DNA of 36,370 nt. Origin: Kiritimatiellia bacterium. GTDB taxonomy: Bacteria > Verrucomicrobiota > Kiritimatiellia > CAIQIC01 > Lenti-01. Positions within the stretch are counted from its first letter, which is position 1; each line of letters opens with the position of its first letter. The stretch is taken from the NCBI GenBank assembly GCA_017445365.1, contig JAFSUH010000183.1, positions 1 to 36,370 on the forward strand, in the 5' to 3' direction. Shown piece after piece: positions 8,120-35,212 of this stretch. Below the pieces are notes generated by a model, which ran no database searches, had not been told where the DNA came from, and saw only the letters and a list, made by a program, of their open reading frames with translations. Made by a program: the position numbers and the translations under genes.

Positions 8120-8121
8120 GG
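8076..8121. repeat. 46-bp direct repeat, copy within intact vsr
   Basis: It covers the vsr start codon and the first 14-15 codons. It is identical except for one base to 9484-9529, and the two copies bracket the ATPase gene at 8151-9362. Confidence 0.9.
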
Positions 8122-8150
8122 GTTCTTGTCCGGGTTCCGCCCGCGCCCGT

Positions 8151-9362: not shown

Positions 9363-9386
9363 TGCGTTTGTATCCTTGCGAATGCG

Positions 9387-9416
9387 AATTTATGTGATAC
9401 GTCATGCATCCGTCAA
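9387..9416 (-). promoter_or_regulatory. Candidate promoter of the inserted ATPase gene
   Basis: On the minus strand TTGACG (9411-9416) and TAAATT (9387-9392) are 18 bases apart, 24 bases ahead of the start codon. The stretch is AT-richer than its surroundings and lies inside the inserted cassette, which would let the ATPase be expressed on its own. Confidence 0.5.
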
Positions 9417-9443
9417 CGAAAATTCATGTTTCAAGACACGATT

Positions 9444-9527
9444 TCAAAGGAACAAACCATGTCCGGAAACACGATTCCGGCCTGCCGCCATCATCCGGCT
9501 CCCCGTCTCCCGGCTCACCGTGTCCAT
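9444..9527 (-). pseudogene. Truncated 5' remnant of vsr
   Basis: From the ATG at 9527, 9 bases after the DUF2357 gene stop, the frame reads MDTVSRETGSRMMAA and then diverges and stops after 27 codons. The first 15 residues match intact vsr except for one Gly/Arg change. This is the original start of vsr, separated from the rest of the gene by the ATPase cassette. Confidence 0.8.
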
Positions 9528-9529
9528 GG
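9484..9529. repeat. 46-bp direct repeat, copy next to the DUF2357 gene
   Basis: Matches 8076-8121 at 45 of 46 positions. The two copies delimit an insert of about 1.4 kb. Confidence 0.9.
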
Positions 9530-9536
9530 CCGGTTC

Positions 9537-11708
9537 CTACCGCTTCAGCGAAAACAACCAGTATTCCGCGTGTCCCGGCTTCGGATATCCCATCCCGGAG
9601 AGTTTTTCGCGGGAAACCCGTTCCACGCCCGTGATGAAAAACACCTCCACGTCGGCGGTTCTCCTCCCGCGCGGCGGCGCGGCCAACGCCAGGATCCGTT
9701 TCCGCCGGGCGTCCGCCTCCGTCAGGATTCCCTTTCCCTCCGCCTCTTCGCACGGCAGGGGATAGAGCAGGCGCTTTTCCACCCACGCGGTTTTTTCCGA
9801 TTCCGCGCCGTGGCTTGTTCCGTAGAGCGTCAAATCTTCCGCGGCCCCCGCGATGCCGTCGACGAACGCCGACGTTCCCCGTGTCGGGATGGTGCCGTCG
9901 AGGTGGGCGTGCGCGTCCGCCTTCCCGAGGATTCCGCGGATGCACGCTTCCAGCGGCCCGAGATGTCCCGGCAGCAGCGGAACCGCCCCGATGTTTTCCC
10001 GCCGGATCGATTCCGCGTAATCCCCGCAGAGATGCGGCTCCGGCCTGCCCGGATAGAGCACGTAGGCCCCGATGGTTTCGCGTTTCAGTTCCGTCTTCCC
10101 GAGCCGGTAGAGGATGGCGTCCCGGTAGCGGTGCATGTCGTCGATGGCCGCGCGCGGCGAAGCGTCGATTTCCCTCCCGCCTTCCGTCTTCGTCGCGATG
10201 CGGTATTTCGCGTCGAAGAGGTAGGTGAACGTCGATTCCCCGTCGACAATCGACAGCACGATGTCCGGCCGCTGCGGGTTGAGTCCCGCCATCGTCCCGC
10301 CGTCGGCGCACTCCTCCGCCGGGTACGTCTTCTGGTAGGAAAGCAGGCACCGCCGCGACCCGTCCGAAAACGCCACGTCGATCTTGCAGAGCTGGCCGCC
10401 GTCCCCGCTTTCGTCCGTCAGCTCCGGCGCGTCCAGGAGTTCGTCGGGCGAACGGTCCCGCCACTCCTGGCTTTCCGGTTCGCCGAAATGCGCCTTCAGG
10501 ACGTCCCGCATCTTGAGGAAGCACCAGAATTCGTAGAGCGTGCTGATCGGCCGGTATCCGACGTCGATGTCGTCGCCTCCCGGACGGAGCGCCGACTTCA
10601 GTTTCAGCCATGCCGTGAGGATTTGCGCGTATCCCGTGCTTTTCTGCATCACGAGGCTCTGCTGGCGGAACCCCTCGAACCGCGACACGCCCCGGAAGAA
10701 CGGATGCCGCGCCAGCCGTTCCAGCCGCCGCGCCCGTTCGGCGATGCCGTCCTTCCAGCCCTGCGAGACGGCCTCCTCGTCCTCCAGCCGCCCGCCGAAC
10801 TCCCGGAGGCGCCGTTCCAGTTCCCGCAGCGTATGGAGCACGAAGCGGTTTTCCGGCGTGTCGCTCTCCGCTTCCAGCCGTTCCGTACGGAAGAACTCGT
10901 GCGCGCGCCGGTCGCCGTCCAGGCGGTGGAAGCAGGCGGCCAGTTGCGGCGTCCAGCGCCGGATGCGGTCGGCGCGCCGCCAGTCGTCCATCGCCAGATA
11001 CCGCCGGTGGGGATTCCCGGCGATGCGGCGGCAGGCGCCCTCGTAGTAGTCGAACACCTCCAGCAGGATGTCGTACCAGCTTTTCCCGTCCGGTTCGCCG
11101 CCCCGGTCGAGGGCCGCCCCCCAAAACGTCTTGCTGAGGAACGCCCGCACGATGTTCGGCTTTTCCGCGTCGATAGTCCGGACGATTTCCCCGTAGTCGC
11201 GCACCACGTTCATTTTCACGGAAACCACCGTGGATTCCAGCCGCACCGTCCGCTCCGTGCCGTCGTCGAAGGAAACGCGCAGGTCGAGCCGGAACCGCCC
11301 CGGCTCGTTGACGAAGTCCAGCGTCCCGACGAGGACCCCGCCGTCGAAGTTGAAGGCGTCCGCCACGCTGGCCATCCGGTGTTCCACGCGCACGTCCCGC
11401 ACTTTCCGTCCCCCCGCCTCCCCGAAGTCCCCCCGGAAGAAGTAGCGCGTCTCGAAAAACACGGGCAAGGCCTTCACGGGTTCGCCGCCCGCGGCGAATG
11501 CCCGTTCCGGGCCGTCCCCCGCGAAGCGGAACGTGCAGTCGGCGTTCGCGGAATACTCCGTCAAAAGCTTCGACTGGTCCTCCGGGAAATCCTCCAGGAT
11601 GCGCTTCCGGTAGGCCTCCTGTTTGCCGCCGATGTCGCCCCGCACCTTGAGAACGAGCCCGACGGACGGCACCGCCGCCCGGAACACCTCTGTCGCACCC
11701 TGCGCCAT
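9537..11708 (-). CDS. DUF2357 / PD-(D/E)xK nuclease, McrC-like restriction subunit
   Basis: A 723-residue protein. The N-terminal two thirds fit the DUF2357 type of McrBC-associated proteins. The C-terminal part has a PD-(D/E)xK nuclease core with RPD482I, then FD499AK501Y, and a downstream helix IDDMHRYRDAI. Proteins of this kind pair with McrB-like AAA+ GTPases; the GTPase translocates and the nuclease cuts. The partner gene is two genes upstream (13260-14816). The start lies 3 bases after the stop of the AlbA-type gene, so translation is probably coupled. It is the likely cleavage subunit of the island. GC content is high and matches the chromosome, unlike the upstream methyltransferase segment. 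The family assignment is by motif and context; target specificity cannot be read from the sequence. Confidence 0.85.
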   Translation of the reverse strand: MAQGATEVFRAAVPSVGLVLKVRGDIGGKQEAYRKRILEDFPEDQSKLLTEYSANADCTFRFAGDGPERAFAAGGEPVKALPVFFETRYFFRGDFGEAGGRKVRDVRVEHRMASVADAFNFDGGVLVGTLDFVNEPGRFRLDLRVSFDDGTERTVRLESTVVSVKMNVVRDYGEIVRTIDAEKPNIVRAFLSKTFWGAALDRGGEPDGKSWYDILLEVFDYYEGACRRIAGNPHRRYLAMDDWRRADRIRRWTPQLAACFHRLDGDRRAHEFFRTERLEAESDTPENRFVLHTLRELERRLREFGGRLEDEEAVSQGWKDGIAERARRLERLARHPFFRGVSRFEGFRQQSLVMQKSTGYAQILTAWLKLKSALRPGGDDIDVGYRPISTLYEFWCFLKMRDVLKAHFGEPESQEWRDRSPDELLDAPELTDESGDGGQLCKIDVAFSDGSRRCLLSYQKTYPAEECADGGTMAGLNPQRPDIVLSIVDGESTFTYLFDAKYRIATKTEGGREIDASPRAAIDDMHRYRDAILYRLGKTELKRETIGAYVLYPGRPEPHLCGDYAESIRRENIGAVPLLPGHLGPLEACIRGILGKADAHAHLDGTIPTRGTSAFVDGIAGAAEDLTLYGTSHGAESEKTAWVEKRLLYPLPCEEAEGKGILTEADARRKRILALAAPPRGRRTADVEVFFITGVERVSREKLSGMGYPKPGHAEYWLFSLKR

Positions 11709-11711
11709 GAC

Positions 11712-13244
11712 TCAAGTCTTCACGAACCACCCGCCCGTCCGCTTGGAACCGCGATATTCAATTTTGTTATGAGAGGCCAAACGGCCTAAAACGCGGCGGA
11801 TAGAGCGGGTGGAGGTCTTGATTTCGAGAAAAATAGCTTCCAGTTTTATTCCGGGGTGATTGTGAATCACTTCCAAAACGGCCTGATCTTGAGCATCTGT
11901 ATCGTATGGCTTCACTTGGTTTATCTGGCCACTCTTAGCCTTTATTGGGCCACTTTCCGGATTTATCTGGCCACTTTCCGCGTTTATTTGGCCACTCTCG
12001 GAGTTTATCTGGCCACATTTTGCTTTATCGTGCCACTTTGTCTGGCCACTTTCGCCCTGCGCCATGACGGTGACACGAAACTCCGTCCGCTTGTTGACGT
12101 CGAACTGCGCGGGAGGATTGCCGTTTTTCTGCAACTCCCGGTTGGCCTTGGCGATTCCGCGGTTGTATTTGTTCACCATGCCCAGAACCTTCATCGCCTC
12201 GGCCAGAAGCGGATTCCGATAATCGTTGACGAAAGGGAAATTCTCCGGCTTGGCCCGCCCGTAAAGTCCGCCGGCGTTGGAAATCTCGATCCGGTTCTTC
12301 TCGTATTCGTAGAACTTGACGGGAGCGTTCCCCAGAAAATAGTCCCGGTGGATGATGGCGTTCATCAAAAACTCGCGCAACGCCCAGGCGGAATACCGGG
12401 AAACGGGGTCTTCCCTCATGGCGGTGGCCAGAACGGGACGCGTCGCCGCCGGCCCCGTCTTGACGAACACGTCCAGTTCCTGAACCATTCTCACCAGCGG
12501 CCCGCGGAAAACGTTTTCCTGAAGCACGTCTCCGGCATTGTCCGCCCCGGCGAACTTGACGTATTGCACGTAAGCCGACGGGATGAAGCGTTCCGGATGC
12601 TTCGCAAACAAAAGAACACCCAGATTTGTCGGACACCCCTTTTCTGGGCTGTAAAACCTCAAGGCGCTCATCTGCTCGATGGTCGTGCGGTCGTCGTCCT
12701 CGATGACCTGGGCGTCGATGGCTTTGGGCAGATAGAAGGCTTTGAAGAGCGAGATGTCCAAATCGGTCATCTTCGTGCGTTCGCAAGGAAGCTCCTCGTC
12801 CCTTGCTCCGAATCGCGCACGGCGTTCTGTGAGAATGTGGATGTCATCCTCCCGTGCCTTGCACCTCCGCGGTCCCAGTCGAATCCAGACCTCCCCGTTG
12901 TAGCGGATGGGCGGATAGGCCGAAGGAAACACCTTAATGACGATGACATCGCCCTCCTTCAACGAAAACTTCTCCATGGACATCGACGGCGGCGGCAAAA
13001 GGTTGCCGTCCGTCTTCAGCCCGCCCAACGACGCCCACCGCTCGTCGTCGATGCGCCGCCCGGAAATCTTTCCGTCGTCATCGACGCCGAGAAGCAGATA
13101 CCCGGCCTCCTCGCTGCCCGAAATGTCGTTGGCGAACGCGCAAATCGCCTGCCCGATTTTGTCCGCCTTGTCGAATGCACGGGTGCGCTCGACGTGTTCG
13201 TCCTCGAACGCCCCGATCAGTTGCCTGAGTTCCTTTTCGTCCAT
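11712..13244 (-). CDS. AlbA_2/Schlafen-type ATP-binding protein with heptad-repeat linker and winged helix
   Basis: A 510-residue protein. The N-terminus (about 10-130) fits the AlbA_2 divergent AAA/Schlafen-like domain, with AICAFANDISGSEEAGYLLLGVDDDGKI. A central GHKL-like half (ALREFLMNAIIHRDY...RIEISNAGG) is the usual partner in 'RNA-binding/ATP-binding' transcription-regulator-like proteins. Residues about 394-445 are a linker of heptads built on SGQINxE. The tail (about 446-510) looks like a winged helix (HPGIKLEAIFLEIKTSTRSIRRVLGRL). Proteins of this family occur widely in defence islands and are thought to bind nucleic acid; their role is not settled. The start follows the McrB-like stop by 15 bases with GGAAAGGG upstream, and the stop is 3 bases before the nuclease gene, so it belongs to the same operon. 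Confidence 0.82.
   Translation of the reverse strand: MDEKELRQLIGAFEDEHVERTRAFDKADKIGQAICAFANDISGSEEAGYLLLGVDDDGKISGRRIDDERWASLGGLKTDGNLLPPPSMSMEKFSLKEGDVIVIKVFPSAYPPIRYNGEVWIRLGPRRCKAREDDIHILTERRARFGARDEELPCERTKMTDLDISLFKAFYLPKAIDAQVIEDDDRTTIEQMSALRFYSPEKGCPTNLGVLLFAKHPERFIPSAYVQYVKFAGADNAGDVLQENVFRGPLVRMVQELDVFVKTGPAATRPVLATAMREDPVSRYSAWALREFLMNAIIHRDYFLGNAPVKFYEYEKNRIEISNAGGLYGRAKPENFPFVNDYRNPLLAEAMKVLGMVNKYNRGIAKANRELQKNGNPPAQFDVNKRTEFRVTVMAQGESGQTKWHDKAKCGQINSESGQINAESGQINPESGPIKAKSGQINQVKPYDTDAQDQAVLEVIHNHPGIKLEAIFLEIKTSTRSIRRVLGRLASHNKIEYRGSKRTGGWFVKT
11920..12018 (-). repeat. 21-bp tandem repeats encoding SGQINxE heptads
   Basis: Four to five imperfect 21-base units, seen on the plus strand as TTTATCTGGCCACTnTC, inside the AlbA-type gene. 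They encode a repeating SGQINxE peptide in the linker before the C-terminal winged helix. Unit number is likely to vary between strains by slippage. Confidence 0.85.
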
Positions 13245-13259
13245 ACCCGTTCCCTTTCC

Positions 13260-14816
13260 TTACGGCCAAAACGTCAGATATTCGTCCGGGCGGGCGAGAA
13301 TCGCCTCCATCATCTTCGCGCTCATGCCCTCCGCCGGAACCTTGTCCTTGAGGCCCGGCAGGTTCTTTTCCCCGCCTTCGCCCTTGACCTTGTGCCCGTT
13401 GAAGAGGACATCGACGATTCTCCGCTCCCCGTGGATGCGGGGCAGGAGCTTCATCAGCACCACGTGGTCGAGCGCCTTGGCCGCGAATGCCTTTTTCGCC
13501 GCGTCCCCGGCCGCCGCCGTGTCGAATCCCTCCAGCTTCGCCAGCGCCGCTTCGTAGAGCGCGTATTCGTTCGCGAACCGGTAGGCCACGACGAAGGCCG
13601 TGTTCGCCAGCGGCTCGTTGATGCCGTCCAGGAGGGCGCTTTCGATTCCGCCCACCGCGCCGCGCACGCCGCCGTCGAGGAAGAAGCGGATGCCGTCGTC
13701 GTCGAGCAGTTCCTCTTCGGACGGCTTCCGGACGTTTGCCATGCCGCCGAAATCCGCTTCGGTCATGAGCAGCGTCATCGCCCGGTCGAGGACCTTGCGG
13801 GAGAACTGGCACGTCGTCTCGTCCATGTTGACGGTGCCGACCACGAACAGGTTCTTCGGGATGGTCAGCCCGTGCGCGGCGATCCATTCCGCCGCCTCGA
13901 CGGATTCGGCCCCTTTCATGACCTGCCCGAGGAACTCCGGGTCCGCTTCTTCCCCAGACCGCTCCGTTTCCACCAGCGGGTCGGTGAGCCAGACGCCGTT
14001 TTTCTCCTCCATGCTCTCGATGGCGCTCAGGTATTCGGCGAAATATTGCTCCACCGGTGCCAGGTTCATCTCGTCGAGGCAGACGAAGAACGGCGTCCCG
14101 GGATGGGCATGGGCCTTGCAGAGGAACGAGACGAACGGCGTGTTGACGAAGTGCCGCCCGCCCATTTCGGAGAAATACCCGAGAAGGTCGGACGAATCGT
14201 GCCAGTTGGGCTTCACCTGCACCATGCAGTAGTTGCCCGGGGCCGTCCGCCCCTCTCCTTCCGCCGCCAGCGCCTCGTCGTTGCACGTCATGTAGGCGAG
14301 CCGCCGCACCAAGCGGCTCTTGCCGGTCCCGGAATGCCCCGCGAGGATGGCGAACGGCTTGGTCCTGAGCGCCGCCGCCAGCCGCTGCAGCATCCCGTCG
14401 CCGCCGAACGCATCCGCCAGCGACCGGGCCCCGTGCTTTTGCGCCGCCTGTGCATCGACCCGTTTCCATTGCTTTTTCATGATTTCCTCCCGGGTTGCTT
14501 TGTCTCCTACATCCGCATGGACAACGGGAATCTGTCCCAAAACCATCTTTGCCATTTTTGCCAGAGTCCCCGCATAACCGTATTCAAATCGGTCAATCTC
14601 CGTTTTTCCGACGAGTTTTTCTCTCGCGGTTTGAGACGGCATGTCGGGAGATTCCCTGTATGCCTCCACCCATTCAGCGAGCAAAGCCTTGGAAATCGTG
14701 CGGACGCCAACCGCACCGTTCGAAACCGACTTTACGCTGTAGCAAAGCCTGTCTTCATCCAAAACAACCAGCGAATCATCCTGGGTTTTGTCGCCAACGC
14801 TCAATTCTTTTTGCAT
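13260..14816 (-). CDS. McrB-like AAA+ ATPase/GTPase with unidentified N-terminal domain
   Basis: A 518-residue protein. Its AAA+ core has Walker A GHSGTGKS (160-167), Walker B FFVCLDE (D248, E249) and the McrB-type signature GTVNMDETT...RKVLDRA (about 327-346). McrB proteins hydrolyse GTP, assemble as rings and drive a McrC-type nuclease, here probably the DUF2357 protein. The first 112 residues form an unrecognised domain in the position of McrB DNA-recognition domains. GAGGG supports the start at 14816. A second in-frame ATG at 14480 (Met113) follows GGGAGG, giving a 406-residue AAA+-only product. E. coli mcrB also makes a short form from an internal start. Base composition changes at the same place, with the N-terminal part AT-richer, so the gene may be a fusion of two origins. 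Confidence 0.9.
   Translation of the reverse strand: MQKELSVGDKTQDDSLVVLDEDRLCYSVKSVSNGAVGVRTISKALLAEWVEAYRESPDMPSQTAREKLVGKTEIDRFEYGYAGTLAKMAKMVLGQIPVVHADVGDKATREEIMKKQWKRVDAQAAQKHGARSLADAFGGDGMLQRLAAALRTKPFAILAGHSGTGKSRLVRRLAYMTCNDEALAAEGEGRTAPGNYCMVQVKPNWHDSSDLLGYFSEMGGRHFVNTPFVSFLCKAHAHPGTPFFVCLDEMNLAPVEQYFAEYLSAIESMEEKNGVWLTDPLVETERSGEEADPEFLGQVMKGAESVEAAEWIAAHGLTIPKNLFVVGTVNMDETTCQFSRKVLDRAMTLLMTEADFGGMANVRKPSEEELLDDDGIRFFLDGGVRGAVGGIESALLDGINEPLANTAFVVAYRFANEYALYEAALAKLEGFDTAAAGDAAKKAFAAKALDHVVLMKLLPRIHGERRIVDVLFNGHKVKGEGGEKNLPGLKDKVPAEGMSAKMMEAILARPDEYLTFWP
14478..14491 (-). promoter_or_regulatory. Internal Shine-Dalgarno and start codon inside the McrB-like gene
   Basis: On the minus strand GGGAGG (14486-14491) is followed after 5 bases by an in-frame ATG (14478-14480). 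It is among the strongest ribosome binding sites in the island, although it lies inside a reading frame. It would start translation at Met113, just before the AAA+ core. Confidence 0.6.
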
Positions 14817-18039: not shown

Positions 18040-20976
18040 TCAAAGAATCTTTGACAAAACAAAATTGGCACCTGTCAACCCTCCAAGTTCGGGTTCGTCT
18101 GCCAAGATAAGGTCAAAGCCAAATTCCTTTAATGACTCTCGGGCAATGTACAAACCAAGGCCCTGTCCACCAGGACGTCGGGAAAAGCCCGGTTCGAAAA
18201 TGTATGGAGCATCCATCTTTGAAACTCCAGGGCCAGAATCAGACAGTACCAATGAGCCGTTAGCTGACACCGAGAGTCTTACAGCAGGGATTAGTGTTCC
18301 CTGTTTCGCCCAATAAAGGGAGTTTATGAAAAGGTTGTGGATTGCACCAAGGAACACAGGCCGATTCAATCCGGACCACTGGGCTAATTTAAACGAGTCA
18401 GTAAATTCACCATACACCAATTCAAGTTCCTTGACGAATCTGCGTTTCAAAAAATCCTCAATTTGGGAGCCTGTAAGACTTTCGCTCTTTGAACTACGAC
18501 GGCGTATGAGTGGATCCATCAAACGTATACGCTCTTCAATGATACCAAACGAATCCTTCAGTGCTTGAAGGCGCGTCAAATCCTCTCCCGAAAGTCGCTT
18601 GGAAAGTTTCTGGATAGTATCACGAACAATATCCACTTGCTTCTCATACTCATGCGTTGCCGTCTCGAATACGAGACCCAACTGCGCAGCAGTGACTATG
18701 TGGGAATGTTGCTCGCGCAACATCTGCAACTCGCGCGTCTGATCGGAGAGAACAAAGACGCCATTTTCGCCATCCGTAAGATGTTGCAAATTTGCACAAA
18801 GAGTTTTAAGCCGTGGAAGCACATTAGACTCCAACTCGTCAACCTCAGCTTGGATTGCCATTTCAAAAATTTCGACAGCTTGGCCCGAGCAATCCGCTGC
18901 CACTATCCGAGGCGTCAAACCATTCAAGTAATTGTCGCGAACCAGCTTTAAATTTCCGATTTCCCTTTCTACATAATCGTTTAATGCAGGAGATAGTTTT
19001 TCCACCTGCTTGAATGGTTCTGCTACTAGATTTGATATCCTTTTACGAACGAGTTCATCAACATTCTGTAATCGAACCAAGAAATGTCGTTCACGTTCTT
19101 TCATTGGGCGGACATGCGCCGCCATTTTTTGAAAATCTTGTTCTTCGCGGGCAATCTCTCCTTGCAGATTTGTGATTTGAACAGCACGTTTGGAAATGTA
19201 ATCTGTAATAATTTCCCAAGCATCACCGCATATGACAACACCATCTGGTGGTTCAGCAACGGAGGTTTGCAACTCGTTCAGGTATTCACGCAGTTTTTCA
19301 ATGGCCACCTCGCACTCGTGCAATCCTTCAGCAGAAATCGCATTCATTGTACGATTGAGCAACTGGCGCGAATGCCTAACGGCAACAACAATTGTCTCTT
19401 TGAAATTATCTAGCCATCCACGGGCATAACGTATCCTGGTTTGATACTCTTCCTTTTCCCGCTCAAGTCGCGCCTGTGCAGCCGCTTTTTTCTTCTCTTC
19501 ACGCAAGCGTCGTTTATCTTCACGATCCGCCTTGCGACCGAGGAAACGGTCTGCAATATCCACAAATACATCTTCAAGCCAGAAACGAAGGCCTCGACTT
19601 GCACCATTAACGATGAAGCCCTCCCGTCCCGCTTTTTCCTTGATTTGGTTACTATCTGCTGGAAGAAAAACCCCGCCGAACATCCGCAAGTGCGAAAAAT
19701 AATAGCGGCCAGCATTCTTGAGACGCCGTTGTTCAAAGCCCGCAAAATCGCTGTCCGGTGCACCATATGGTTGAACATGGACGCCGCCTTTATAAATGGA
19801 AAAGCCACCAGCATACTGCAAACGCATATCCATTTGACGATGCAAATCTGGTGGTAAAAATGAAATTGCAGCCGTTCCTTGCACATATCCAATTTCGATT
19901 AAGAACCGGCCCGGCGTTCGCATGCCCAGCGGCAACCTCTTCAATTGTCGACTGTATCTTATTTTTTCGGATTGATAATTGGCGATATATCCCTTTGCAA
20001 ATCCATTCTCGGAAACTTCAATGCGGATATGGTGATCGCATTTCTCGAAATCGTCAGGACTCCAATAACGGTATTTCTTATCCTTGCGAACAGGCGTTCC
20101 GTTTTTGAAGACTTCAATACGGAACGGCCTGACTTCTTCAGAATGGAATGGGTCCCAAAAACTGGAAAAAGCATTGACCGACTTCAGTTCGTAAGCGGAA
20201 GCGTCTTCCAACTCGTCCGTTCTCACAGGCGAAGTTCTGAATAAATCGCGGAGATCTTCGTTCGTGTGTACGCACAGGAACGTTGTTCCCATTTCAAAAT
20301 CACATTTCAATTGGCTCAATATCTGTTCCGATGGAATTGTAATATCGGACTGTAGCTCACGGCGAAGCGATTCGTCCCATGTCTCGTCGTGAAGGATGCC
20401 ATCGACAAGAGGGGACTGTCTCAACGACGAAAAAACGGTCTCAAATTCCTCTGGACTTGGGCCATGGTCAAACTCGGCACATGGAATGGGCAAATCCGTA
20501 AGCAATTTGGTCGGATGCCGGAAAAGATGCCAGTGGACGATGCACAACGTCCCACGTTTTTTGGATCCTTCACCCCAAACCGACCAAAGGACGGTCATTC
20601 GACCCAGGGAAGCGACCGAGAGTCTGCCGATTCCTTTTTCGCCATACGTTGTTTTGAGCCATTCCTTCTGCTCTGGCGTCGCGAATTCAGTCCATCCGTC
20701 ATCTTCTTTCTTGGCGAATTTCGATTCGGTGGCAAGAACAAGCCATTTCCCGACCACATCTTCCTTGCAACGCATTCCAAGACCATCGTCGTGAATGGAC
20801 AAAAAACCGATGCCGTTGCTGTGGTCTGCATCGAAATAATCAACTTGAACACGTCTTGCTCCCGCATCAAGAGCGTTTTTGAAGAGTTCACCGGTAGCCG
20901 TTGGTGCATCGGCGATTTGCTGCCTCCCCAACAAATCAATTACACGGGCTCTGCTTCTGAAGTTTTCAATTGCCAT
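18040..20976 (-). CDS. Double-GHKL ATPase: HSP90/MORC-like N-terminus and histidine-kinase-like C-terminus
   Basis: A 978-residue protein. I chose the ATG at 20976, which has AGGG 8 bases upstream; a GTG three codons earlier is possible. The N-terminal ATPase has an N-box (GELFKNALDAGA, N33), DDGLGM (63-68) and GEKGIGRLSVASLG, the pattern of HSP90/MutL/MORC GHKL ATPases. A long charged coiled coil lies near residues 480-515. The C-terminal part resembles a histidine kinase: H775 in ETATHEYEKQ could be the phospho-acceptor, with an N-box around N881-N885, SDSGPG (D913) and FSRRPGGQGLGLYIA. GHKL ATPases of the MORC type are known from restriction-modification neighbourhoods. The receiver-like partner follows 13 bases downstream. 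GC content is visibly lower than in the rest of the window, consistent with transfer. Confidence 0.88.
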   Translation of the reverse strand: MAIENFRSRARVIDLLGRQQIADAPTATGELFKNALDAGARRVQVDYFDADHSNGIGFLSIHDDGLGMRCKEDVVGKWLVLATESKFAKKEDDGWTEFATPEQKEWLKTTYGEKGIGRLSVASLGRMTVLWSVWGEGSKKRGTLCIVHWHLFRHPTKLLTDLPIPCAEFDHGPSPEEFETVFSSLRQSPLVDGILHDETWDESLRRELQSDITIPSEQILSQLKCDFEMGTTFLCVHTNEDLRDLFRTSPVRTDELEDASAYELKSVNAFSSFWDPFHSEEVRPFRIEVFKNGTPVRKDKKYRYWSPDDFEKCDHHIRIEVSENGFAKGYIANYQSEKIRYSRQLKRLPLGMRTPGRFLIEIGYVQGTAAISFLPPDLHRQMDMRLQYAGGFSIYKGGVHVQPYGAPDSDFAGFEQRRLKNAGRYYFSHLRMFGGVFLPADSNQIKEKAGREGFIVNGASRGLRFWLEDVFVDIADRFLGRKADREDKRRLREEKKKAAAQARLEREKEEYQTRIRYARGWLDNFKETIVVAVRHSRQLLNRTMNAISAEGLHECEVAIEKLREYLNELQTSVAEPPDGVVICGDAWEIITDYISKRAVQITNLQGEIAREEQDFQKMAAHVRPMKERERHFLVRLQNVDELVRKRISNLVAEPFKQVEKLSPALNDYVEREIGNLKLVRDNYLNGLTPRIVAADCSGQAVEIFEMAIQAEVDELESNVLPRLKTLCANLQHLTDGENGVFVLSDQTRELQMLREQHSHIVTAAQLGLVFETATHEYEKQVDIVRDTIQKLSKRLSGEDLTRLQALKDSFGIIEERIRLMDPLIRRRSSKSESLTGSQIEDFLKRRFVKELELVYGEFTDSFKLAQWSGLNRPVFLGAIHNLFINSLYWAKQGTLIPAVRLSVSANGSLVLSDSGPGVSKMDAPYIFEPGFSRRPGGQGLGLYIARESLKEFGFDLILADEPELGGLTGANFVLSKIL

Positions 20977-20986
20977 ATTGCACACC

Positions 20987-21015
20987 CTGTTATTTCCGCT
21001 TTTTTAGCGGGACAA
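20987..21015 (-). promoter_or_regulatory. Inverted repeat in the candidate promoter of the defence operon
   Basis: CCGCT (20996-21000), five T's and AGCGG (21006-21010) form a 5-bp inverted repeat 20-34 bases ahead of the GHKL start codon. On the minus strand it lies between a weak -35 (TTGTCC, 21010-21015) and a weak -10 (TAACAG, 20987-20992), the place expected for an operator. The promoter call is uncertain because it would leave a leader of only a few bases. Confidence 0.3.
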
Positions 21016-21257
21016 CGGAACACATCGGAATCAGTTGGGAGGAGAAAACCGGCATGGGCACAACATCCTGTGGAAGAAGCCTTGGCAACCTAGCATCCCG
21101 ACCCCTTCCCCGGCAATCACCGATTCCCTTGCCGATAGCGCCGAGGAGAGTGGAGGGCGTTGGAAAATGCTTTGCCAACAAGGGGGAACGGCATGAGGAA
21201 GGCCTTTTGCGAAAGCGGACAAGGACGAACCCGCGCTTGCGCGGGGTTCCGATGCCG

Positions 21258-21406
21258 TTTTTTCGCGTTTTTTTCGGTTTGGGAGGCCGTTTTTTGCCGA
21301 TTTTTTCGAAATTTCGTAAATTTTTGGACGATTTTTTGGCGTTTTGTCGATTTTTTGGAAAATTTCGGCAAATTTCGGCAAATTTTTCCCGTTTTCAATC
21401 CCTTTT
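21258..21406 (+). other. Phased T-tract array, predicted intrinsically curved DNA
   Basis: Fifteen T-runs (3-7 T's, some as AAATTT) have centres near 21260, 21271, 21279, 21292, 21303, 21311, 21321, 21334, 21343, 21353, 21362, 21372, 21383, 21393 and 21404. The mean spacing is 10.3 bases, one helical turn. A/T tracts repeated in phase with the helix bend DNA in one direction, so strong curvature is expected. Such DNA often binds nucleoid proteins or marks promoters and recombination sites; its role here is unknown. Confidence 0.75.
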
Positions 21407-21632
21407 CGGCCATTTACCTGCCAAAATGCCGTCCCCCCTCCCCGCACGCTCCCCCTTCGCCCTCTCAATCCCGCGGGCGGGGTTCCCGGGACGGCCTTTT
21501 CGGTCGCTTCCCGGGCCAGCACGGCCCTTCCGGCGGCTTCGTCGGTGTTTCCTGGCACGTTTTTCCCGAAAAACGCTTTCTTTTGCCGCATCCCCGCTTG
21601 GCAACTTCGCCCATCGGGAGGCTCCCCGCCTA

Positions 21633-21659
21633 CGGCAAATTTGGAATCGAAATTTGCCG
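21633..21659. repeat. Perfect 10-bp palindrome with GGCAAATTT arms
   Basis: CGGCAAATTT (21633-21642) and AAATTTGCCG (21650-21659) flank a 7-base spacer. The arms resemble those of the intergenic palindrome family but the order of A/T and GCC is reversed. It is a possible protein-binding site. Confidence 0.6.
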
Positions 21660-21778
21660 CCAGTCCGACGCCAACTGTCACGACAAAAACACGCCAAACG
21701 TCACAATGGAGGCCGAACAATCCCGTTTCCGAGCGGCCATTAGGCGACTTTTTTCCATCAGTTCCGTAAAATCGGCGT

Positions 21779-21838
21779 CCTTTTTTACATTTGTGCCGTA
21801 AAAAAGGCGGGACATTCCGTCCGGGAATGTGCTAGTTT
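21779..21838 (+). promoter_or_regulatory. Two inverted repeats in the candidate promoter of the DUF4143 ATPase gene
   Basis: CCTTTTTTAC and GTAAAAAAGG (21779-21788, 21798-21807) form a perfect 10-bp inverted repeat with a 9-base spacer. ACATTCC and GGAATGT (21812-21818, 21824-21830) form a second with a 5-base spacer. The second overlaps a weak -35 (GGGACA, 21809-21814) and the spacer to TAGTTT (21833-21838), 7 bases ahead of the ATG. The position fits repressor binding, for example autoregulation. Confidence 0.45.
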
Positions 21839-21845
21839 CATCGCC

Positions 21846-23051
21846 ATGAAAACAAAATCCCGTGCCATTCTCGGCTCCAGCCGCAGTTTTTTCCTCTTCG
21901 GTCCGCGCGGAACGGGCAAGACCACATGGCTCAAGGAAACATTTCCGGATGCCGTTGTCATCGACCTTCTGGCCCCGTCCGTCCGGCGCCGGTTCCTGGT
22001 GCAACCGGAGCGGCTTGCCGAAATCGTGGAGGGGCGGAACGGAACGGATACTTTCGTCATCGACGAAGTCCAACGCGTTCCGGCCCTTCTGGACGTCGTC
22101 CATGAACTCATCGACACGAAGCCGGGGTTGCGTTTCGTCCTCACGGGATCGAGCGCCCGGAAACTCAAACGGAGCGGCAACGTCGATTTGCTGGGAGGTC
22201 GCGCCGTGCAACGATTCTGCCATCCGTTCCTCGCCTGCGAAATGGGGAAGGACTTTTCGCTTCCCCGTGCCTTGCGCCAAGGCATGATTCCCCTCGTCGT
22301 GCGGCAGCCCGAAAAGGAGGCGGCCGACATCCTCCAAACCTATCTGGACCTCTACATCCAGGAGGAGGTGACGACCGAAGGCGTGGTCCGCAACCTCGAC
22401 GCCTTCGCCCGCTTCCTCGAAGCTGCTTCCTTCTCCCACGGTTCCGTCATCTCCGCAAGCGGAATCGCCCGGGAGAGCGGCGTCAAGCGTTCGACCGTCG
22501 ATGGCTATTTCGCCATCCTCCGGGACATGCTCCTGACGGCACGGCTTCCCGTGTTCGCCAAACGCGCCAAACGGGCGCTCGTCGCACACGACAAATTCTA
22601 TTTTTTCGACGCGGGCGTTTTCCGCGCCCTCCGTCCGGCCGGACCGCTCGACCGGCCCTCCGAAATCGACGGAGCCGCGCTCGAAGGCCTCGTGTTCCAG
22701 CATCTGCGCGCCTGGAACGATTATTCCGGCGCCCCCGATTTCCTCGGATACTGGCGGACCAAGGCGGGGGTCGAAGTCGATTTCGTCCTCTACGGAGAGA
22801 AGGACTTCGCCGCCATCGAAGTCAAGAACGCGGCAACCCTGCATCCGTCCGATTTCACCGGCCTGAAGTCCTTCCGCGAAGATTATCCGGAAGCGCGGAC
22901 CCTCCTGCTCTACCGCGGCGAAACGCAATTCCTCCGCGACGGTATCCTCGTCGTTCCGGCGGAGAAGTTCCTCCGCTCGCTGGTTCCCGGACGGCCGCCG
23001 CTCGAAGCGTTTTCCGGAGAGGCGGCTTCCGCCTGCGCGGGAACGGATTGA
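21846..23051 (+). CDS. AAA_14 ATPase with DUF4143 nuclease-like C-terminus
   Basis: A 401-residue protein of the common AAA_14-DUF4143 architecture. Walker A is GPRGTGKT (19-26), Walker B is FVIDEVQRVP (D73, E74), and VLTGSSARKL serves as the sensor segment. The C-terminal domain has the DUF4143 pattern VDFVL (D312) and AIEVKNA (E325, K327), which resembles a PD-(D/E)xK nuclease core. The function of the family is not established; members occur in many copies per genome and in defence and mobile regions. The leader appears to be very short and its promoter carries two palindromes. The gene lies between the defence island and two tRNA genes and is oriented opposite to both. The gene at 8151-9362 is a distant relative in the same window. 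Confidence 0.93.
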   Translation: MKTKSRAILGSSRSFFLFGPRGTGKTTWLKETFPDAVVIDLLAPSVRRRFLVQPERLAEIVEGRNGTDTFVIDEVQRVPALLDVVHELIDTKPGLRFVLTGSSARKLKRSGNVDLLGGRAVQRFCHPFLACEMGKDFSLPRALRQGMIPLVVRQPEKEAADILQTYLDLYIQEEVTTEGVVRNLDAFARFLEAASFSHGSVISASGIARESGVKRSTVDGYFAILRDMLLTARLPVFAKRAKRALVAHDKFYFFDAGVFRALRPAGPLDRPSEIDGAALEGLVFQHLRAWNDYSGAPDFLGYWRTKAGVEVDFVLYGEKDFAAIEVKNAATLHPSDFTGLKSFREDYPEARTLLLYRGETQFLRDGILVVPAEKFLRSLVPGRPPLEAFSGEAASACAGTD

Positions 23052-30056: not shown

Positions 30057-30129
30057 AAAAAGCGGGACCGGCGAACCGGTCCCCAGTCTTAAAACGACTT
30101 CGGCATGTAGCCTTGTTGTGATAAGATGC
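30057..30129 (-). ncRNA. tracrRNA of the type II CRISPR system
   Basis: The minus strand begins GCATC-UU-AUCACAAC, an anti-repeat to the first 15 bases of the crRNA-sense repeat (GTTGTGAT-TT-GATGC): 8 bp, a UU/UU internal loop and 5 bp. AAGGCTACATGCCG follows, with a GGC/GCC nexus hairpin, then a small AGTC/GACT hairpin. A perfect terminator GGGACCGG-TTCG-CCGGTCCC (30064-30083) ends in GC and five T's (30057-30061). The RNA guides crRNA processing and Cas9 loading. It is transcribed away from cas9. The predicted length is about 73 nt. Its start is placed from the promoter at 30136-30163. Confidence 0.88.
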
Positions 30130-30135
30130 AGATGC

Positions 30136-30163
30136 ATTCAAACAGACGACTTAGAAATGTCAA
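30136..30163 (-). promoter_or_regulatory. Promoter of the tracrRNA
   Basis: On the minus strand a consensus TTGACA (30158-30163) is followed after 16 bases by TTGAAT (30136-30141). Transcription 7 bases downstream would begin at 30129, exactly the first base of the anti-repeat. The site lies between the tracrRNA and the cas9 start codon. Confidence 0.7.
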
Positions 30164-30182
30164 GAAAACCTTGGAGAAAACC

Positions 30183-33100
30183 ATGAAGAAAGCGTTGGGT
30201 CTCGATTTGGGGAGCAACTCGCTCGGTTGGGCGATTCTGGACAACGACACGGGGGCCATCCTCGATTCGGGCGTGCTGGTGTTCCCGGAGGGCATCAACC
30301 CCGCCGATGATTCACTGCAGACGCCCGCCGCCATACGCCGGGCCGCGCGCATGGCCCGCCGCATCAAGTTCCACCGGAAAATCCGCAAGTGGCAACTGCT
30401 CTCCGTCCTGCTGGAGCACGGGATGTGTCCAATCACGAAGGAGGAGCTGGCGGCCTGGAAAGCCCACGGGTGCTATCCCACGGCTAACCAGGCGTTCATC
30501 CGCTGGCTGAAGGCGACCGACGCGAGCAATCCCTACTGCGACCGCGCGGCGGCGGCGTCCGGGCCGGTAGCGCCGGAAGTGCTGGGCCGGGCGCTCTACC
30601 ACCTCGCGCAGCGCCGCGGCTTCAAGAGTTCCCGCAAGGATGCGGCGGAGGCGGACGCCGACGGGGGCGACGACCGCAGCGAAACCGGGAAGGTCAAGAC
30701 GGGCATCCAGGCCCTGACGACGGAAATCCGCGCCTCGGGTTGCAAGACGCTGGGGCAGTACTTCCGGAAGTGCCTCGAAGAGGACCGCCGCAAGCCCGCC
30801 AAGCGCCGCATCCGCGCCCGCTACACGGGCCGAATCGAACACTACGAAGCGGAATTCGCAGCCATCATGGACGCCCAGGGCGCAACCATCACCCCGGACC
30901 TCCGCGAAAGCCTGCACAAGGCGATTTTCTACCAGCGGCCGCTCCGTCCGCAGACCCATCTCGTCGGGCCGTGCCTCCTCGAACCGAAGAGTCCGCGCGC
31001 GCAAATCGCGCATCCGGCGTTCGAAGAGTTCCGGATGCTGGCGTTCATCAACAACCTGACGCTGGAAGACGCCGCCGGCGAGTGGCGTGACGCCGTGGGG
31101 AATCCGCTGTATCCGCTGACCGCGGCGGACCGGGCGCTCGTCCGCAAGGCGTTCATGAAAGCCTCGCCGACCTTCAAGTTCGGGGACATCGCCAAGCTCT
31201 TCAAGAAGGACCCGCGCTTCAAGCGGGACCACCTGCGCTTCCATTACTACCGCAACGAGGAAACGCTCCCCAGTTGCATGCTCCTCCACCGCCTCGGGGA
31301 CATCTTCGGAAAGGGGGACGACGCCGACCCGTTCTCCTACCAGGCCGAATTCGACGCCCTGACCTTCCATGACGACACCGACAAACTGCGCGCTTGGCTG
31401 GCGAAGCACCATCCCGAGCTCCCCGAAGACGCCGCCGAACGCTTCCTGAAGCTCCGCCCGCGCGAAGGAAACGCCCAGTATTCCCTGAAGGCGATCCGCC
31501 GCATCCTTCCCTATCTCCGCGAGGGCCACGTCCTCTCCGACGCCCGCTTCTTCGCCAAGCTGGCCGACATCATCCCCGACTTCGCCGCCCGCAAGGACAG
31601 CATCCTGCGCGCCCTGCTCGACATCGAAGAAGCCTACCGCCGCGAGCGCGCCAACCGCTCCCGCGAAGGCGCCGCGCGCGACCAAGCCCCGCTCGTTCCC
31701 CTGATGGACCGCTGGCGCGCCTGGCTCGAAAAAACCTGCGGCGTGGACGAGGAGAAGTGGAAGCGCCTCTACCTGCGCGACGAAAGCCCCTACGCCCCCC
31801 AGACCGAAAACCGCGGCACGCCCCTTGCCAAGCCGCGCCTGCCGCGCGTCGAGCTTGGCATGATCCGCAACCCCCTCGTGCAGCGCTCCATGACAACCCT
31901 CCGCCGCCTCGTCAACTACCTCGGCGACCACGGCAAAATCGACCCCTCCACCACCATCCGCATCGAACTCGCCCGCAACGTCAACGACTACGCCACCCGC
32001 AAGGCTTGGCAAGCTTGGCAGAAGAAGCGGCAGGACCAGCGCGAAGACGCCCGGAAAGCCATTGCCGAGGCCGGCACCGCCCCGACCGAAGACCTCGTCG
32101 ACCGCTACATCCTCTGGCAGGAACAGGGGTGCAAGTGCCTCTACACCGACAGGAGCATCTCCCTGACGGATTTGCTGAACGTCTCGCGGAACGCCCCCTT
32201 CGACATCGAACACACCATTCCCCGGAGCCAGTCCGGCGACGACTCCCTGGCCAACAAGACCCTCTGCGAGATGGCCTACAACCGCCAGACCAAGAAAGGC
32301 CGCATCCCCCGCGATTGCCCCAACTGGGACGAAATCGAACTCCGCCTCCAGCCGTGGCGCGAAAAGCTCGAACAGCTGGAGAAGGGCGTCAAATCCGCCC
32401 AGGGCAAGGCCCGTGCCGCAACCGACCCCCAGGCCCGCGCCAACGCCCGCATCAAGGCCCTCTCCCTGCGCTTCGAACGCGACTACTGGCGCGACAAACT
32501 GCGCCGCTTCGACGCCACGCGCGAACAGCTTGCCTTCGGTACCGGGGAACTGGCCGGATTCAAGAAACGCCAGCTCGTCGATACCGGCATCATGGCCCGC
32601 CACGCCGTCGCCCTCCTCAAGTGCCTCTACCCGCACACCTACCCCGTCAACGGCACCGCCACCGCCTTCGCCCGCAAGGCCTGGGGCATCCAGACCGACG
32701 AAGCCAAGGACCGCAACGAGCACACCCACCACGCCACCGACGCCATGGTCATCGCCGCCTTGAGCCCCGCCCGCTTCAACGCCATCTGCTCCGCCCTCAA
32801 GGACGACGGCCGCGACCGCCGCCGCCCGTGCGACATCTGCCCGCCGCCCTACCGCGACTTCGCCCAAACCGTGCGCCAGGCCACCGACCGCATCCCTGTC
32901 AAACACATCCTCCGCCAGACCACCCTGCGCCAGAGTGCCAAGCGCAATGTTCTCGCCAAAGCCCACGCCCCCAAGGGCAACCCCGACGGCAAGCCCGTCA
33001 AGGCCGTCCTCTCCCGCGGCGATACCGTGCGCGGCGCGCTCCACAAAGACACCTTCTACGGCTGCATCCGGGTCCCGGGAAGCGCCGAAAAGAAATTCGT

Positions 33101-33869
33101 CGTCCGCAAGCCCCTGGAAGGGAAACTCTCCGACATCAAGGCCCTCGCGGGCAGCATCGTGGACCCGACCATCCGCGCCATCGTGGAAGCCGCCGTCCAA
33201 TCCGCCGAAGCCTCCGGCAAGACCGCCTTCCTCGCGGGAGAGATCGCCATGCCCTCCGGCGTCCCCATCCGCCGCGTGCGGGTGTATGCCTCGTCTTCCG
33301 TCGGCCCGGTCCGTTTGCGCGACCATGCCATGCCATCCCGGCACGACCACAAGACTCCCTACTACGTTTCGACCGCCGAAGGCAGCAATTTCCGGCTGGA
33401 CTTGTTCCTGAAAAACGGACGCTTTTCGGCCGTTCCAGACAATTCCCTCTCGTGGGCGCAGGATCACAAGAAGCCGGAGTTCGTCCCCTTGCACGGACGG
33501 GAGGGATTTCTGGGATACGTCAAGCCCGGCAGCATGGCCTTGGTCCATGCCCCGGACAATCCCGAAGAACTGCGGACGCTCGCACCGGCAAGTCTCCGCA
33601 ATCGCCTTTACAAGGTCGTCAAATTCGAAAAGAATGGACTGATGACCTTGCGTTTTCATGCAGAAGCACGGCCAAGCACGGTCCTGTCTGCAACTTTGTC
33701 GTCGGCGGGCAAACGCGGAAAGGGTGAATCCTCAATTTCATTGGATAGTCCACATGAGCTGTTGAGAATCAGTCCTTCGACCTACCGCAACCAAGTCCTG
33801 TTCGAAGGCATCCATTTCCGGATGCTTCTGGACGGGACCATCCGCTTCCTGGATACGGACAAGGCATGA
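30183..33869 (+). CDS. cas9: Cas9 RNA-guided endonuclease, type II-C
   Basis: A 1,228-residue effector that cuts both strands of DNA matched by a crRNA:tracrRNA guide. All catalytic residues are present. RuvC-I is GLDLGSNSLGWAI (D8). The Arg-rich bridge helix lies at about 51-70. RuvC-II is IRIELARN (E595). The HNH domain has FDIEHTIPRS (H677) and LANKTLCEMAYNRQTKKGR. RuvC-III is HTHHATDA (H850, D853). The remaining about 370 residues form the wedge and PAM-interacting region. I chose the ATG at 30183 because GGAG lies 6 bases upstream and RuvC-I then starts at the usual place; the frame extends to 30126 but would overlap the tracrRNA promoter. Type II-C follows from the cas9-cas1-cas2 order without csn2 or cas4, although the protein is longer than the roughly 1,000-1,100 residues common in that subtype. 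It overlaps cas1 by 4 bases. Confidence 0.98.
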   Translation: MKKALGLDLGSNSLGWAILDNDTGAILDSGVLVFPEGINPADDSLQTPAAIRRAARMARRIKFHRKIRKWQLLSVLLEHGMCPITKEELAAWKAHGCYPTANQAFIRWLKATDASNPYCDRAAAASGPVAPEVLGRALYHLAQRRGFKSSRKDAAEADADGGDDRSETGKVKTGIQALTTEIRASGCKTLGQYFRKCLEEDRRKPAKRRIRARYTGRIEHYEAEFAAIMDAQGATITPDLRESLHKAIFYQRPLRPQTHLVGPCLLEPKSPRAQIAHPAFEEFRMLAFINNLTLEDAAGEWRDAVGNPLYPLTAADRALVRKAFMKASPTFKFGDIAKLFKKDPRFKRDHLRFHYYRNEETLPSCMLLHRLGDIFGKGDDADPFSYQAEFDALTFHDDTDKLRAWLAKHHPELPEDAAERFLKLRPREGNAQYSLKAIRRILPYLREGHVLSDARFFAKLADIIPDFAARKDSILRALLDIEEAYRRERANRSREGAARDQAPLVPLMDRWRAWLEKTCGVDEEKWKRLYLRDESPYAPQTENRGTPLAKPRLPRVELGMIRNPLVQRSMTTLRRLVNYLGDHGKIDPSTTIRIELARNVNDYATRKAWQAWQKKRQDQREDARKAIAEAGTAPTEDLVDRYILWQEQGCKCLYTDRSISLTDLLNVSRNAPFDIEHTIPRSQSGDDSLANKTLCEMAYNRQTKKGRIPRDCPNWDEIELRLQPWREKLEQLEKGVKSAQGKARAATDPQARANARIKALSLRFERDYWRDKLRRFDATREQLAFGTGELAGFKKRQLVDTGIMARHAVALLKCLYPHTYPVNGTATAFARKAWGIQTDEAKDRNEHTHHATDAMVIAALSPARFNAICSALKDDGRDRRRPCDICPPPYRDFAQTVRQATDRIPVKHILRQTTLRQSAKRNVLAKAHAPKGNPDGKPVKAVLSRGDTVRGALHKDTFYGCIRVPGSAEKKFVVRKPLEGKLSDIKALAGSIVDPTIRAIVEAAVQSAEASGKTAFLAGEIAMPSGVPIRRVRVYASSSVGPVRLRDHAMPSRHDHKTPYYVSTAEGSNFRLDLFLKNGRFSAVPDNSLSWAQDHKKPEFVPLHGREGFLGYVKPGSMALVHAPDNPEELRTLAPASLRNRLYKVVKFEKNGLMTLRFHAEARPSTVLSATLSSAGKRGKGESSISLDSPHELLRISPSTYRNQVLFEGIHFRMLLDGTIRFLDTDKA

Positions 33870-34768
33870 TTGCGAAAACGCTGGCGTTCGGTTCTCCCGG
33901 AAAGTTGAGCCTCAAGGACCGGCAACTGGTCTATGACGGGGAAGACGGCGTCCACCGCACGTTTCCCGTCGAAGACTTGGGGTTCGTGTTCATCGAAACG
34001 GGACGGGTTCTCGTGACTTCCGCCTGCCTGCAAGCCTTGTCGGAAGCCAATGTCGCCGTGGTGGTTTGCGGTCCTTCCCACCTCCCACAGGCCCAGTTGC
34101 TGCCCTTCGAGGCGAACGCCACCATGCAGGAAACCGCGGAAGCCCAGTTGGAAGCGACCCCGGCGGCGCAAGGGCGCCTTTGGAAGCGGATCGTCCAAGC
34201 CAAGCTCCGCAACCAGGCCGCCCTGCTTTCGGCATTGGGACAACCGGGCGGCGGACGCCTCGAAAACTTGGCTTCGGCTGTCAAAAACGGCGATCCCGCC
34301 AACTGCGAGGCGCAGGGGGCGAGGATTTATTTCCAATCGTTGGCCCCCACCGCGGATTTCCGGCGGAACCCGGACGGTGTTTGGCCCAACGCGGCGCTCG
34401 ATTACGGCTACGCCGTCCTGCGGGCCGCCGTCGCCCGCGCGCTCGTGGGCTCCGGACTCGTCTGTTTCCGCGGCATCCACCACCACAACCGCTACAACCC
34501 CTTTTGCCTGGCCGACGACGTGATGGAGGCATACCGTCCTTTTGTCGACCAGTTCGTCTTCGGCCCGGATGCTCCCGCGCGTTCTTCGCCGGATGGCAAG
34601 TTGACCCCGCCTATCAAGGCGGCGCTCCTCTCCTGCCTGACGTGCGATGTCGCCATCGGCGGGCTCAAGCGGCCCTTGATGATTGCCCTTTCGTCCACTT
34701 CGGCGTCGCTCGCCCGGTGTTATCTGGAAAAAACGCCGGACATTTCCTTGCCCGCCTTTCTCCCGTGA
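33866..34768 (+). CDS. cas1: Cas1 integrase of the CRISPR adaptation complex
   Basis: A 300-residue, type II-sized Cas1. With Cas2 it inserts new spacers into the array. The metal-binding active site is visible as E148 (NCEAQGARIYF), the GIHHHNRYNPFCLADDVMEAYRP block (His205-207) and the acidic residues D217/E221. The start codon ATG overlaps the cas9 stop (ATGA), so translation is coupled. There is no reverse-transcriptase or Cas4 fusion. Nothing suggests loss of function, and the identical repeats of the array fit recent or well-maintained adaptation. Confidence 0.98.
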   Translation: MIAKTLAFGSPGKLSLKDRQLVYDGEDGVHRTFPVEDLGFVFIETGRVLVTSACLQALSEANVAVVVCGPSHLPQAQLLPFEANATMQETAEAQLEATPAAQGRLWKRIVQAKLRNQAALLSALGQPGGGRLENLASAVKNGDPANCEAQGARIYFQSLAPTADFRRNPDGVWPNAALDYGYAVLRAAVARALVGSGLVCFRGIHHHNRYNPFCLADDVMEAYRPFVDQFVFGPDAPARSSPDGKLTPPIKAALLSCLTCDVAIGGLKRPLMIALSSTSASLARCYLEKTPDISLPAFLP

Positions 34769-35209: not shown

Positions 35210-35212
35210 AAT

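What the first reader, a model, noticed from the sequence alone, without database searches (positions are those of the whole stretch)
21258..21406. Fifteen T-tracts phased at 10.3 bp beside the defence island
Seen: T-runs recur in step with the helix over about 150 bp (mean centre spacing 10.3). Known: A/T tracts in helical phase give strongly curved DNA. Inference: the array may recruit a nucleoid protein that silences the AT-richer island, act as an upstream element for one of the two flanking promoters, or mark a recombination boundary. The regularity is much greater than in any other non-coding stretch of this window.
Basis: partly seen in the sequence, partly recalled or inferred. Interest (0 to 1): 0.58.

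Follow-up and report, generated by a model that had tools for sequence, protein, structure and literature searches.

The report
Curved DNA array between two genes
A 150-letter stretch between two bacterial genes has runs of T spaced once per turn of the DNA helix, so it is predicted to be strongly bent; related bacteria carry similar arrays beside quite ordinary genes, so it is a DNA-shape element of a known kind, not something special to the neighbouring defence genes.

Summary
Window 21258-21406 holds 15 T-runs of 3 or more, mean centre spacing 10.29 bp; 0 of 2000 shuffles reach its periodicity, and nothing else in the window, or in 425 kb of the same genome, comes near it. Two wedge models predict a bend of about 100 degrees per 73 bp. 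It is non-coding.

The one relative with an orthologous defence gene has no array there; no H-NS gene was found in 19 genomes; the array lies 281 and 439 bp from the two start codons. Similar arrays recur between genes in other genera of the same family (18 non-coding in 266 kb of G007), beside genes such as glutamate dehydrogenase and EF-G. They share a period of 10.25 +/- 0.14 bp and use A- and T-runs interchangeably. Two sites comparable with a congener lack the array there.

Best reading: a phased A-tract cluster (known kind) acting through shape, probably placing a supercoil tip or loop; a neutral, fast-turnover array is the main rival. A separate order-wide dyad repeat, about 515 copies here, was found in passing.

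The parts
21258..21406 (.). phased T-tract array, 15 T-runs, period 10.2-10.3 bp, non-coding
21407..21427 (.). weaker continuation of the same phase (ATTT 21412-21415, AAAAT 21423-21427)
21360..21395 (+). two exact copies of CGGCAAATTT, and a 22-base exact match (21374-21395) to a species dyad pair elsewhere in the genome (C51)
21290..21387 (.). degenerate dyad-like positions (matrix score 6.1 at 21293, 9.9 at 21343, 12.8 at 21354, 11.8 at 21364); not significant against permuted units
21227..21249 (.). GC-rich hairpin with a one-base bulge, immediately beside the array
18040..20976 (-). flanking gene: HATPase with HEF_HK domain, first gene of the AT-richer island; start taken as ATG 20976 by comparison with the G001 orthologue
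21846..23051 (+). flanking gene: AAA_14 + DUF4143 ATPase (PADLOC PDC-S01)

Best explanation
The stretch is a non-coding phased A-tract cluster: T-runs placed once per helical turn, giving a static bend. It belongs to a class of similar arrays, about 100-200 bp long, scattered between genes in several genera of its own family. Shown: the phasing, its non-coding character, the recurrence of the class, the shared 10.25-bp period, and interchangeability of A- and T-runs, which points to DNA shape and not to a letter-by-letter binding site or an RNA. Modelled: a bend of about 100 degrees per 73 bp. Inferred: in the supercoiled chromosome such a bend favours the tip of a plectoneme or a loop, alone or with HU-type proteins, and so fixes where the chromosome folds. 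This is an architectural role, not a switch for the neighbouring defence genes.
For: Phasing. Predicted bend over 73 bp 108 (Bolshoy) and 101 degrees (AA-wedge), 99.92th and 99.98th percentile of the genome sample. Phased T5-T5-T4 pattern against out-of-phase pattern in the 17 genomes of the family: own 17 v 2, G007 197 v 4, G002 64 v 5, G009 38 v 3, G021 27 v 1; all 17 are given in the full report. Contig samples: non-coding arrays 18 in 266 kb (G007), 4 in 153 kb (G002), 2 in 178 kb (G009); four control period bands together 3, 0 and 2. Period 10.25, sd 0.14, over the 46 of 49 arrays with vector strength above 0.7; A-to-T phase offset 0.45 +/- 0.61 bp in the 17 arrays that hold at least three of both. 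Intrinsic curvature is reported to pin plectonemes, with a tip of about 73 bp and a 240-degree arc, often upstream of promoters (PMC6301789, abstract and passages).
Against: The array is rare in its own genome: in 425 kb the only non-coding one is the window's own, so 0 in the other 389 kb. The G010 (108 kb), G004 (108 kb) and G012 (92 kb) samples hold no non-coding array, so the class is not needed in the family or order. Two G007 array sites comparable with G002 lack an array there. Shuffled arrays that keep the T-runs reach the same modelled 73-bp bend in 20 of 300 (Bolshoy) and 12 of 300 (AA-wedge) cases, and under the Bolshoy model several other stretches of the sample are more curved. 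No experiment and no supercoiling data.
Confidence: 0.45

Rival explanations
1. Neutral or selfish low-complexity array: it grew by small tandem duplications of 1 to 4 helical turns and turns over quickly; the bend is real but has no function.
For: Self-similarity at lags 9-11, 29-32 and 39-43 bp exceeds unit-permuted versions (12, 13 and 5 of 500 reach it); lag 19-22 is reached by 105 and lag 49-54 by 39 of 500. TRF sees a 50-bp unit, 2.1 copies. G007 arrays are partly paralogous (pieces of 83-91% identity). Absent at two syntenic sites in the congener.
Against: A tight common period across genera, and phase kept when A-runs switch to T-runs, are not expected of simple slippage.
Confidence: 0.3
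2. Degenerate cluster of the species' own dispersed dyad TTTTGCCAAnnnTTGGCAAAA, bound by the same unknown protein.
For: Of the 15 positions scoring between 0 and 15 with the dyad matrix in the 424 kb scanned (137 above 0 less 122 above 15), 5 lie in this array; 0 of 400 dinucleotide shuffles reach its best score. A 22-base exact match to a dyad pair in C51.
Against: Permuting the array's own units reaches the same best score in 76 of 400 cases. G007 has many arrays but only 14 dyads in 377 kb; G004 has 22 dyads in 108 kb and no array.
Confidence: 0.12
3. Curved upstream sequence that activates the promoter of one flanking gene.
For: The gap is divergent; curved DNA upstream of bacterial promoters is well documented (PMC516772 passages; PMC6301789 passages).
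Against: 281 and 439 bp from the two ATGs; no array near the G001 orthologue of the - gene nor at comparable strength near 53 homologues of the + gene (best 4.57, in an AT-rich genome).
Confidence: 0.08
4. Nucleoid-protein recruitment site that silences the AT-richer island.
For: Position at the island's edge; composition step near 21 kb.
Against: No H-NS (PF00816) or archaeal-type histone (PF00808) in 19 genomes; arrays elsewhere flank housekeeping genes; the G001 orthologue lacks it.
Confidence: 0.05
5. Strong gyrase site that wraps about 130 bp.
For: Similar length; the E. coli gyrase motif has phased GC content on both arms (PMC6379681, passages).
Against: That motif has period 10.75 and an unphased 36-bp centre; here the phase runs through at 10.2.
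Confidence: 0.05
6. Coding sequence: periodic Lys/Phe codons of an amphipathic or basic peptide.
For: Long ORFs cross it in several frames; comparable arrays in own L087, L092 and C114 do lie in predicted coding sequence.
Against: Best frame scores -0.13 per codon, 5.7th percentile of predicted-gene windows; two candidate ORFs have no Pfam match.
Confidence: 0.02

Closest known systems
A-tract clusters / curvature-related periodicity of bacterial intergenic DNA (Hosid 2004 PMC516772; Abel and Mrazek 2012 PMC3431218; Tolstorukov 2005, cited there, not read)
   Same: runs of A or T in helical phase, intergenic, predicted curvature
   Different: far more regular than the genome around it; period 10.25 where about 11 is reported for E. 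coli (different method); dense only in some genomes of one family
Plectoneme-pinning curved sequences (PMC6301789)
   Same: strong intrinsic curvature over at least 73 bp
   Different: not tested; about 100 degrees per 73 bp modelled here against the 240-degree arc of a tip
Periodic An/Tn clusters (PATCs) of C. elegans (PMC7725773, start of abstract only)
   Same: non-coding runs of A or T in helical phase
   Different: bacterial, about 150 bp, no chromatin silencing known; the likeness is recalled
E. coli gyrase motif (PMC6379681)
   Same: about 130 bp with phased AT
   Different: period 10.75 with an unphased centre

Membership tests
phased A-tract cluster / curved intergenic DNA | A/T runs at 10-11 bp beyond chance | tested here: met
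phased A-tract cluster / curved intergenic DNA | non-coding | tested here: met
   codon model, no Pfam match of two candidate ORFs
phased A-tract cluster / curved intergenic DNA | anomalous gel mobility | not testable with these tools
   only wedge models
plectoneme-pinning site | high curvature over about 73 bp | tested here: inconclusive
   99.9th percentile of the genome sample, but 20 of 300 and 12 of 300 run-shuffled arrays reach it
promoter UP element | lies at about -40 to -60 of a promoter (recalled) | tested here: not met
   281 and 439 bp from the start codons; transcription starts not mapped; no sigma-70 consensus hit in 20900-21900
H-NS-type silencing site | genome encodes H-NS | tested here: not met
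   PF00816 0 of 19 genomes, control E. coli rings; own genome is 66% complete; other silencer families not searched
strong gyrase site | two phased arms of 10.75 bp around an unphased 36-bp centre | tested here: not met
   continuous phase at 10.2 bp against the motif in PMC6379681
species dyad repeat | TTTGCCRANNNYYGGCAAA | tested here: not met
   window dyads score 26-42 with the matrix, the array at most 12.8

The most novel reading that the evidence does not exclude
In this family of Kiritimatiellae-like bacteria the phased arrays and the order-wide dyad repeats are two parts of one lineage-specific chromosome-folding system: curved modules and paired protein sites at near-helical spacings (22, 30/31, 42, 51-53, 63, 73 bp) recognised by an undescribed nucleoid protein.
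Probability: 0.12. Interest if true: 0.8.

Novelty: new member of a known kind. Interest (0 to 1): 0.42.

Why it matters
Why bacteria keep phased A-tracts is an open question. Here one family has a species with many regular non-coding arrays (G007, about one per 15 kb of the sample), species with few (own, G009) and a genome with none in the sample (G004), all at 62-67% GC in the samples. That gives natural presence/absence pairs in which curvature, supercoiling and expression could be compared. For the finding itself the value is mainly corrective: the array is not a part of the defence island.

Tried and rejected
Array as part of the + gene's control region: 53 homologous loci scanned, strongest 4.57, in an AT-rich genome. 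Array as part of the defence gene: G001 orthologue, strongest 2.2. Plasmid and phage copies: no match. Other copies of the whole gap in the own genome: only two short dyad-type matches. Target-site duplication: only a 6-base repeat (ATGCCG) flanks the array, and random pairs share even 7-mers in 19% of trials. Histone-like and H-NS-like binders: none. Orientation of gaps that hold arrays or dyads: dropped, because my codon-based gene finder picked antisense frames in the window itself; the same weakness limits the exact gene borders. Own-genome arrays in C75, C114 and C213 lie in long ORFs (C114 matches PF07697 across the array; the C75 and C213 ORFs given had no match); C244 was not read. G007 arrays with a dyad within 150 bp: 2 of 18, random mean 0.12, random maximum 2: suggestive only.

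Full report
Check of the observation. Spectral power at 10.3 bp is 37.7; none of 2000 dinucleotide shuffles and none of 2000 shuffles that keep the runs and redraw the gaps reach it. The window's next best stretch has under a third of the strength. In 425 kb of the same genome (41 stretches, window included) it stays first, and the next three are in predicted coding sequence.

Surroundings. The array lies in the gap between a - strand HATPase/HEF_HK gene, the first gene of an AT-richer stretch with a Response_reg_2 protein and a C5 methyltransferase, and a + strand AAA_14/DUF4143 gene. It is 281 bp from the first ATG and 439 bp from the second. A GC-rich hairpin sits at 21227-21249. No second copy of the gap exists in the own genome beyond two short matches, and no match was found among plasmids or phages. 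A codon model trained on the same genome puts its best frame at the 5.7th percentile of predicted-gene windows.

Shape. Two dinucleotide wedge models, with parameters recalled, predict 108 and 101 degrees of bend over 73 bp, at the 99.92th and 99.98th percentile of the genome sample. This is not decisive: arrays with the same runs in random spacing reach it in 20 and 12 of 300 trials, and under one model several other stretches of the sample bend more.

Is it tied to the defence gene? The only clear orthologue of the - gene among 18 relatives is in G001 (68% identity). There a gene that reads by eye as a C5 methyltransferase sits directly upstream, a gene resembling the Response_reg_2 one by eye lies downstream, and the strongest phasing in the locus is 2.2, against 6.9 here. 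None of 53 loci with homologues of the + gene has an array of this strength (best 4.57).

A family-wide class. A search for three T-runs in phase, against the same runs out of phase, gives for the 17 genomes of the family (phased v out of phase, both strands): own 17 v 2, G007 197 v 4, G002 64 v 5, G006 40 v 18, G009 38 v 3, G021 27 v 1, G010 23 v 10, G011 21 v 4, G023 19 v 3, G020 18 v 2, G001 10 v 0, G022 10 v 2, G003 6 v 9, G005 5 v 0, G008 3 v 4, G019 3 v 0, G004 1 v 1 (overlapping matches are counted, and some are coding). In contig samples scanned with a periodogram, non-coding arrays number 18 of 19 in 266 kb of G007, 4 of 4 in 153 kb of G002, 2 of 3 in 178 kb of G009, 0 of 1 in 108 kb of G010, 0 in 108 kb of G004, 0 in 92 kb of G012, and 1 of 3 in 425 kb of the own genome, that one being the finding itself. 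Six small single-contig samples (G001, G003, G005, G013, G017, G018; 16-20 kb each) hold none. Gene borders come from a simple codon-based finder, not a standard annotator.

Properties of the class. Over 49 arrays (18 from the G007 sample, 24 targeted in G007, 6 from other genera, and the window) the 46 with vector strength above 0.7 have period 10.25, sd 0.14. A-runs and T-runs alternate freely in many, and their phases differ by only 0.45 +/- 0.61 bp in the 17 arrays that hold at least three of each. This favours a constraint on DNA shape. Genes beside targeted G007 arrays include a TonB-dependent receptor, a type ISP restriction enzyme, glutamate dehydrogenase, elongation factor G, a sigma-54 activator, a pyruvate-ferredoxin oxidoreductase and a sigma-70-type factor; three of the ten proteins scanned had no match. 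So there is no general tie to defence. Some G007 arrays are paralogous. At two places where G007 and G002 could be compared beside an array (L122/L188, L161/L158), G002 has none; in L122 the extra DNA begins, by eye, next to an ATGGAAAACT half-dyad that both share. At a third (L111/L182) G002 does have an array in the neighbourhood, but the gene on its other side differs, so it is not a clean comparison. The arrays therefore seem to come and go.

Mechanism. The most economical reading is a static bend. Curvature is reported to pin plectoneme tips (PMC6301789, passages), and phased A-tracts have long been proposed to help fold bacterial nucleoids (reviewed in PMC3431218, first part read). H-NS and archaeal-type histones were not found in 19 genomes; HU was not searched. 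The gyrase motif has another period and an unphased centre. A neutral origin by local duplication is the main rival: order inside the array is non-random at lags of one, three and four turns.

Link to a dispersed dyad. The genome carries 513 forward and 517 reverse matches of TTTGCCRANNNYYGGCAAA (a near-symmetric pattern, so about 515 sites), while 17 of 18 relatives have none and G010 has one. In the 425-kb sample 103 dyads lie mostly in groups with steps of 30 or 44 bp. The array holds weak dyad-like positions far above dinucleotide shuffles, but permuting its own units gives the same in 76 of 400 cases, so descent from dyads is possible and not shown.

What is in print. I saw search listings for phased A-tracts and sequence periodicity in prokaryotes, part 1 of 3 of PMC3431218, and passages of PMC3940949, PMC6301789, PMC6379681 and PMC516772. 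A search for 'Kiritimatiellota' with 'A-tract' gave 0 papers, and one for Kiritimatiellae with repeat terms listed no paper containing that name among its ten rows shown. The name Kiritimatiellae for this lineage is inferred from the titles of homologous contigs.

Noticed in passing
window 939, 969, 7582, 7612, 25975, 26005, 28731, 28761, 28806, 28836 and genome-wide: Species-specific 19-21 bp dyad TTTTGCCAAnnnTTGGCAAAA, about 515 copies in 2.3 Mb, mostly in steps of 30 or 44 bp, with spacers that look unrelated. Relatives carry a sister dyad TTTTCCAnnnnnTGGAAAA with genus-specific cores (such as TTTTCCAATCATTGGAAAA in G004, TTTTCCACACTGTGGAAAA in G010, TTTTCCAAGGCTTGGAAAA in G012) at spacings 22, 30/31, 42, 51-53, 63, 73 bp. 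Function unknown; no paper was found, but the search was slight.
   Followed up: partly
window 21748-21809: Two 30-bp copies (80% identical, 32 bp apart), the second with a 10-bp inverted repeat, just upstream of the AAA_14/DUF4143 gene; by eye, homologues L030-L032 have pairs of different palindromes at the same place, as if each family member kept its own operator.
   Followed up: partly
window 21633-21659: Palindrome CGGCAAATTTGGAATCGAAATTTGCCG, sharing CGGCAAATTT with the array.
   Followed up: no
L122 1690-2100, L161 4600-5200 (G007): Composite dispersed repeat of dyads, phased array and a shared segment of about 80 bp, in opposite orientations; looks by eye like a non-coding mobile or REP-like element.
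   Followed up: partly
window 30126-34768 and 35200-36370: Type II CRISPR locus: Cas9-like protein (HNH_4, RuvC_III, Cas9_a), Cas1, and a repeat array at the contig end.
   Followed up: partly
window 7649-14816: Second defence-like cluster: Vsr, AAA_14, DUF2357/PDDEXK_7, AlbA_2 and AAA_5 proteins.
   Followed up: no
L133 1309-1540 (own C114): A phased array of period 10.4 inside a coding sequence, in the 7TMR-HDED region of a predicted protein; phased arrays may also enter genes as linkers.
   Followed up: no
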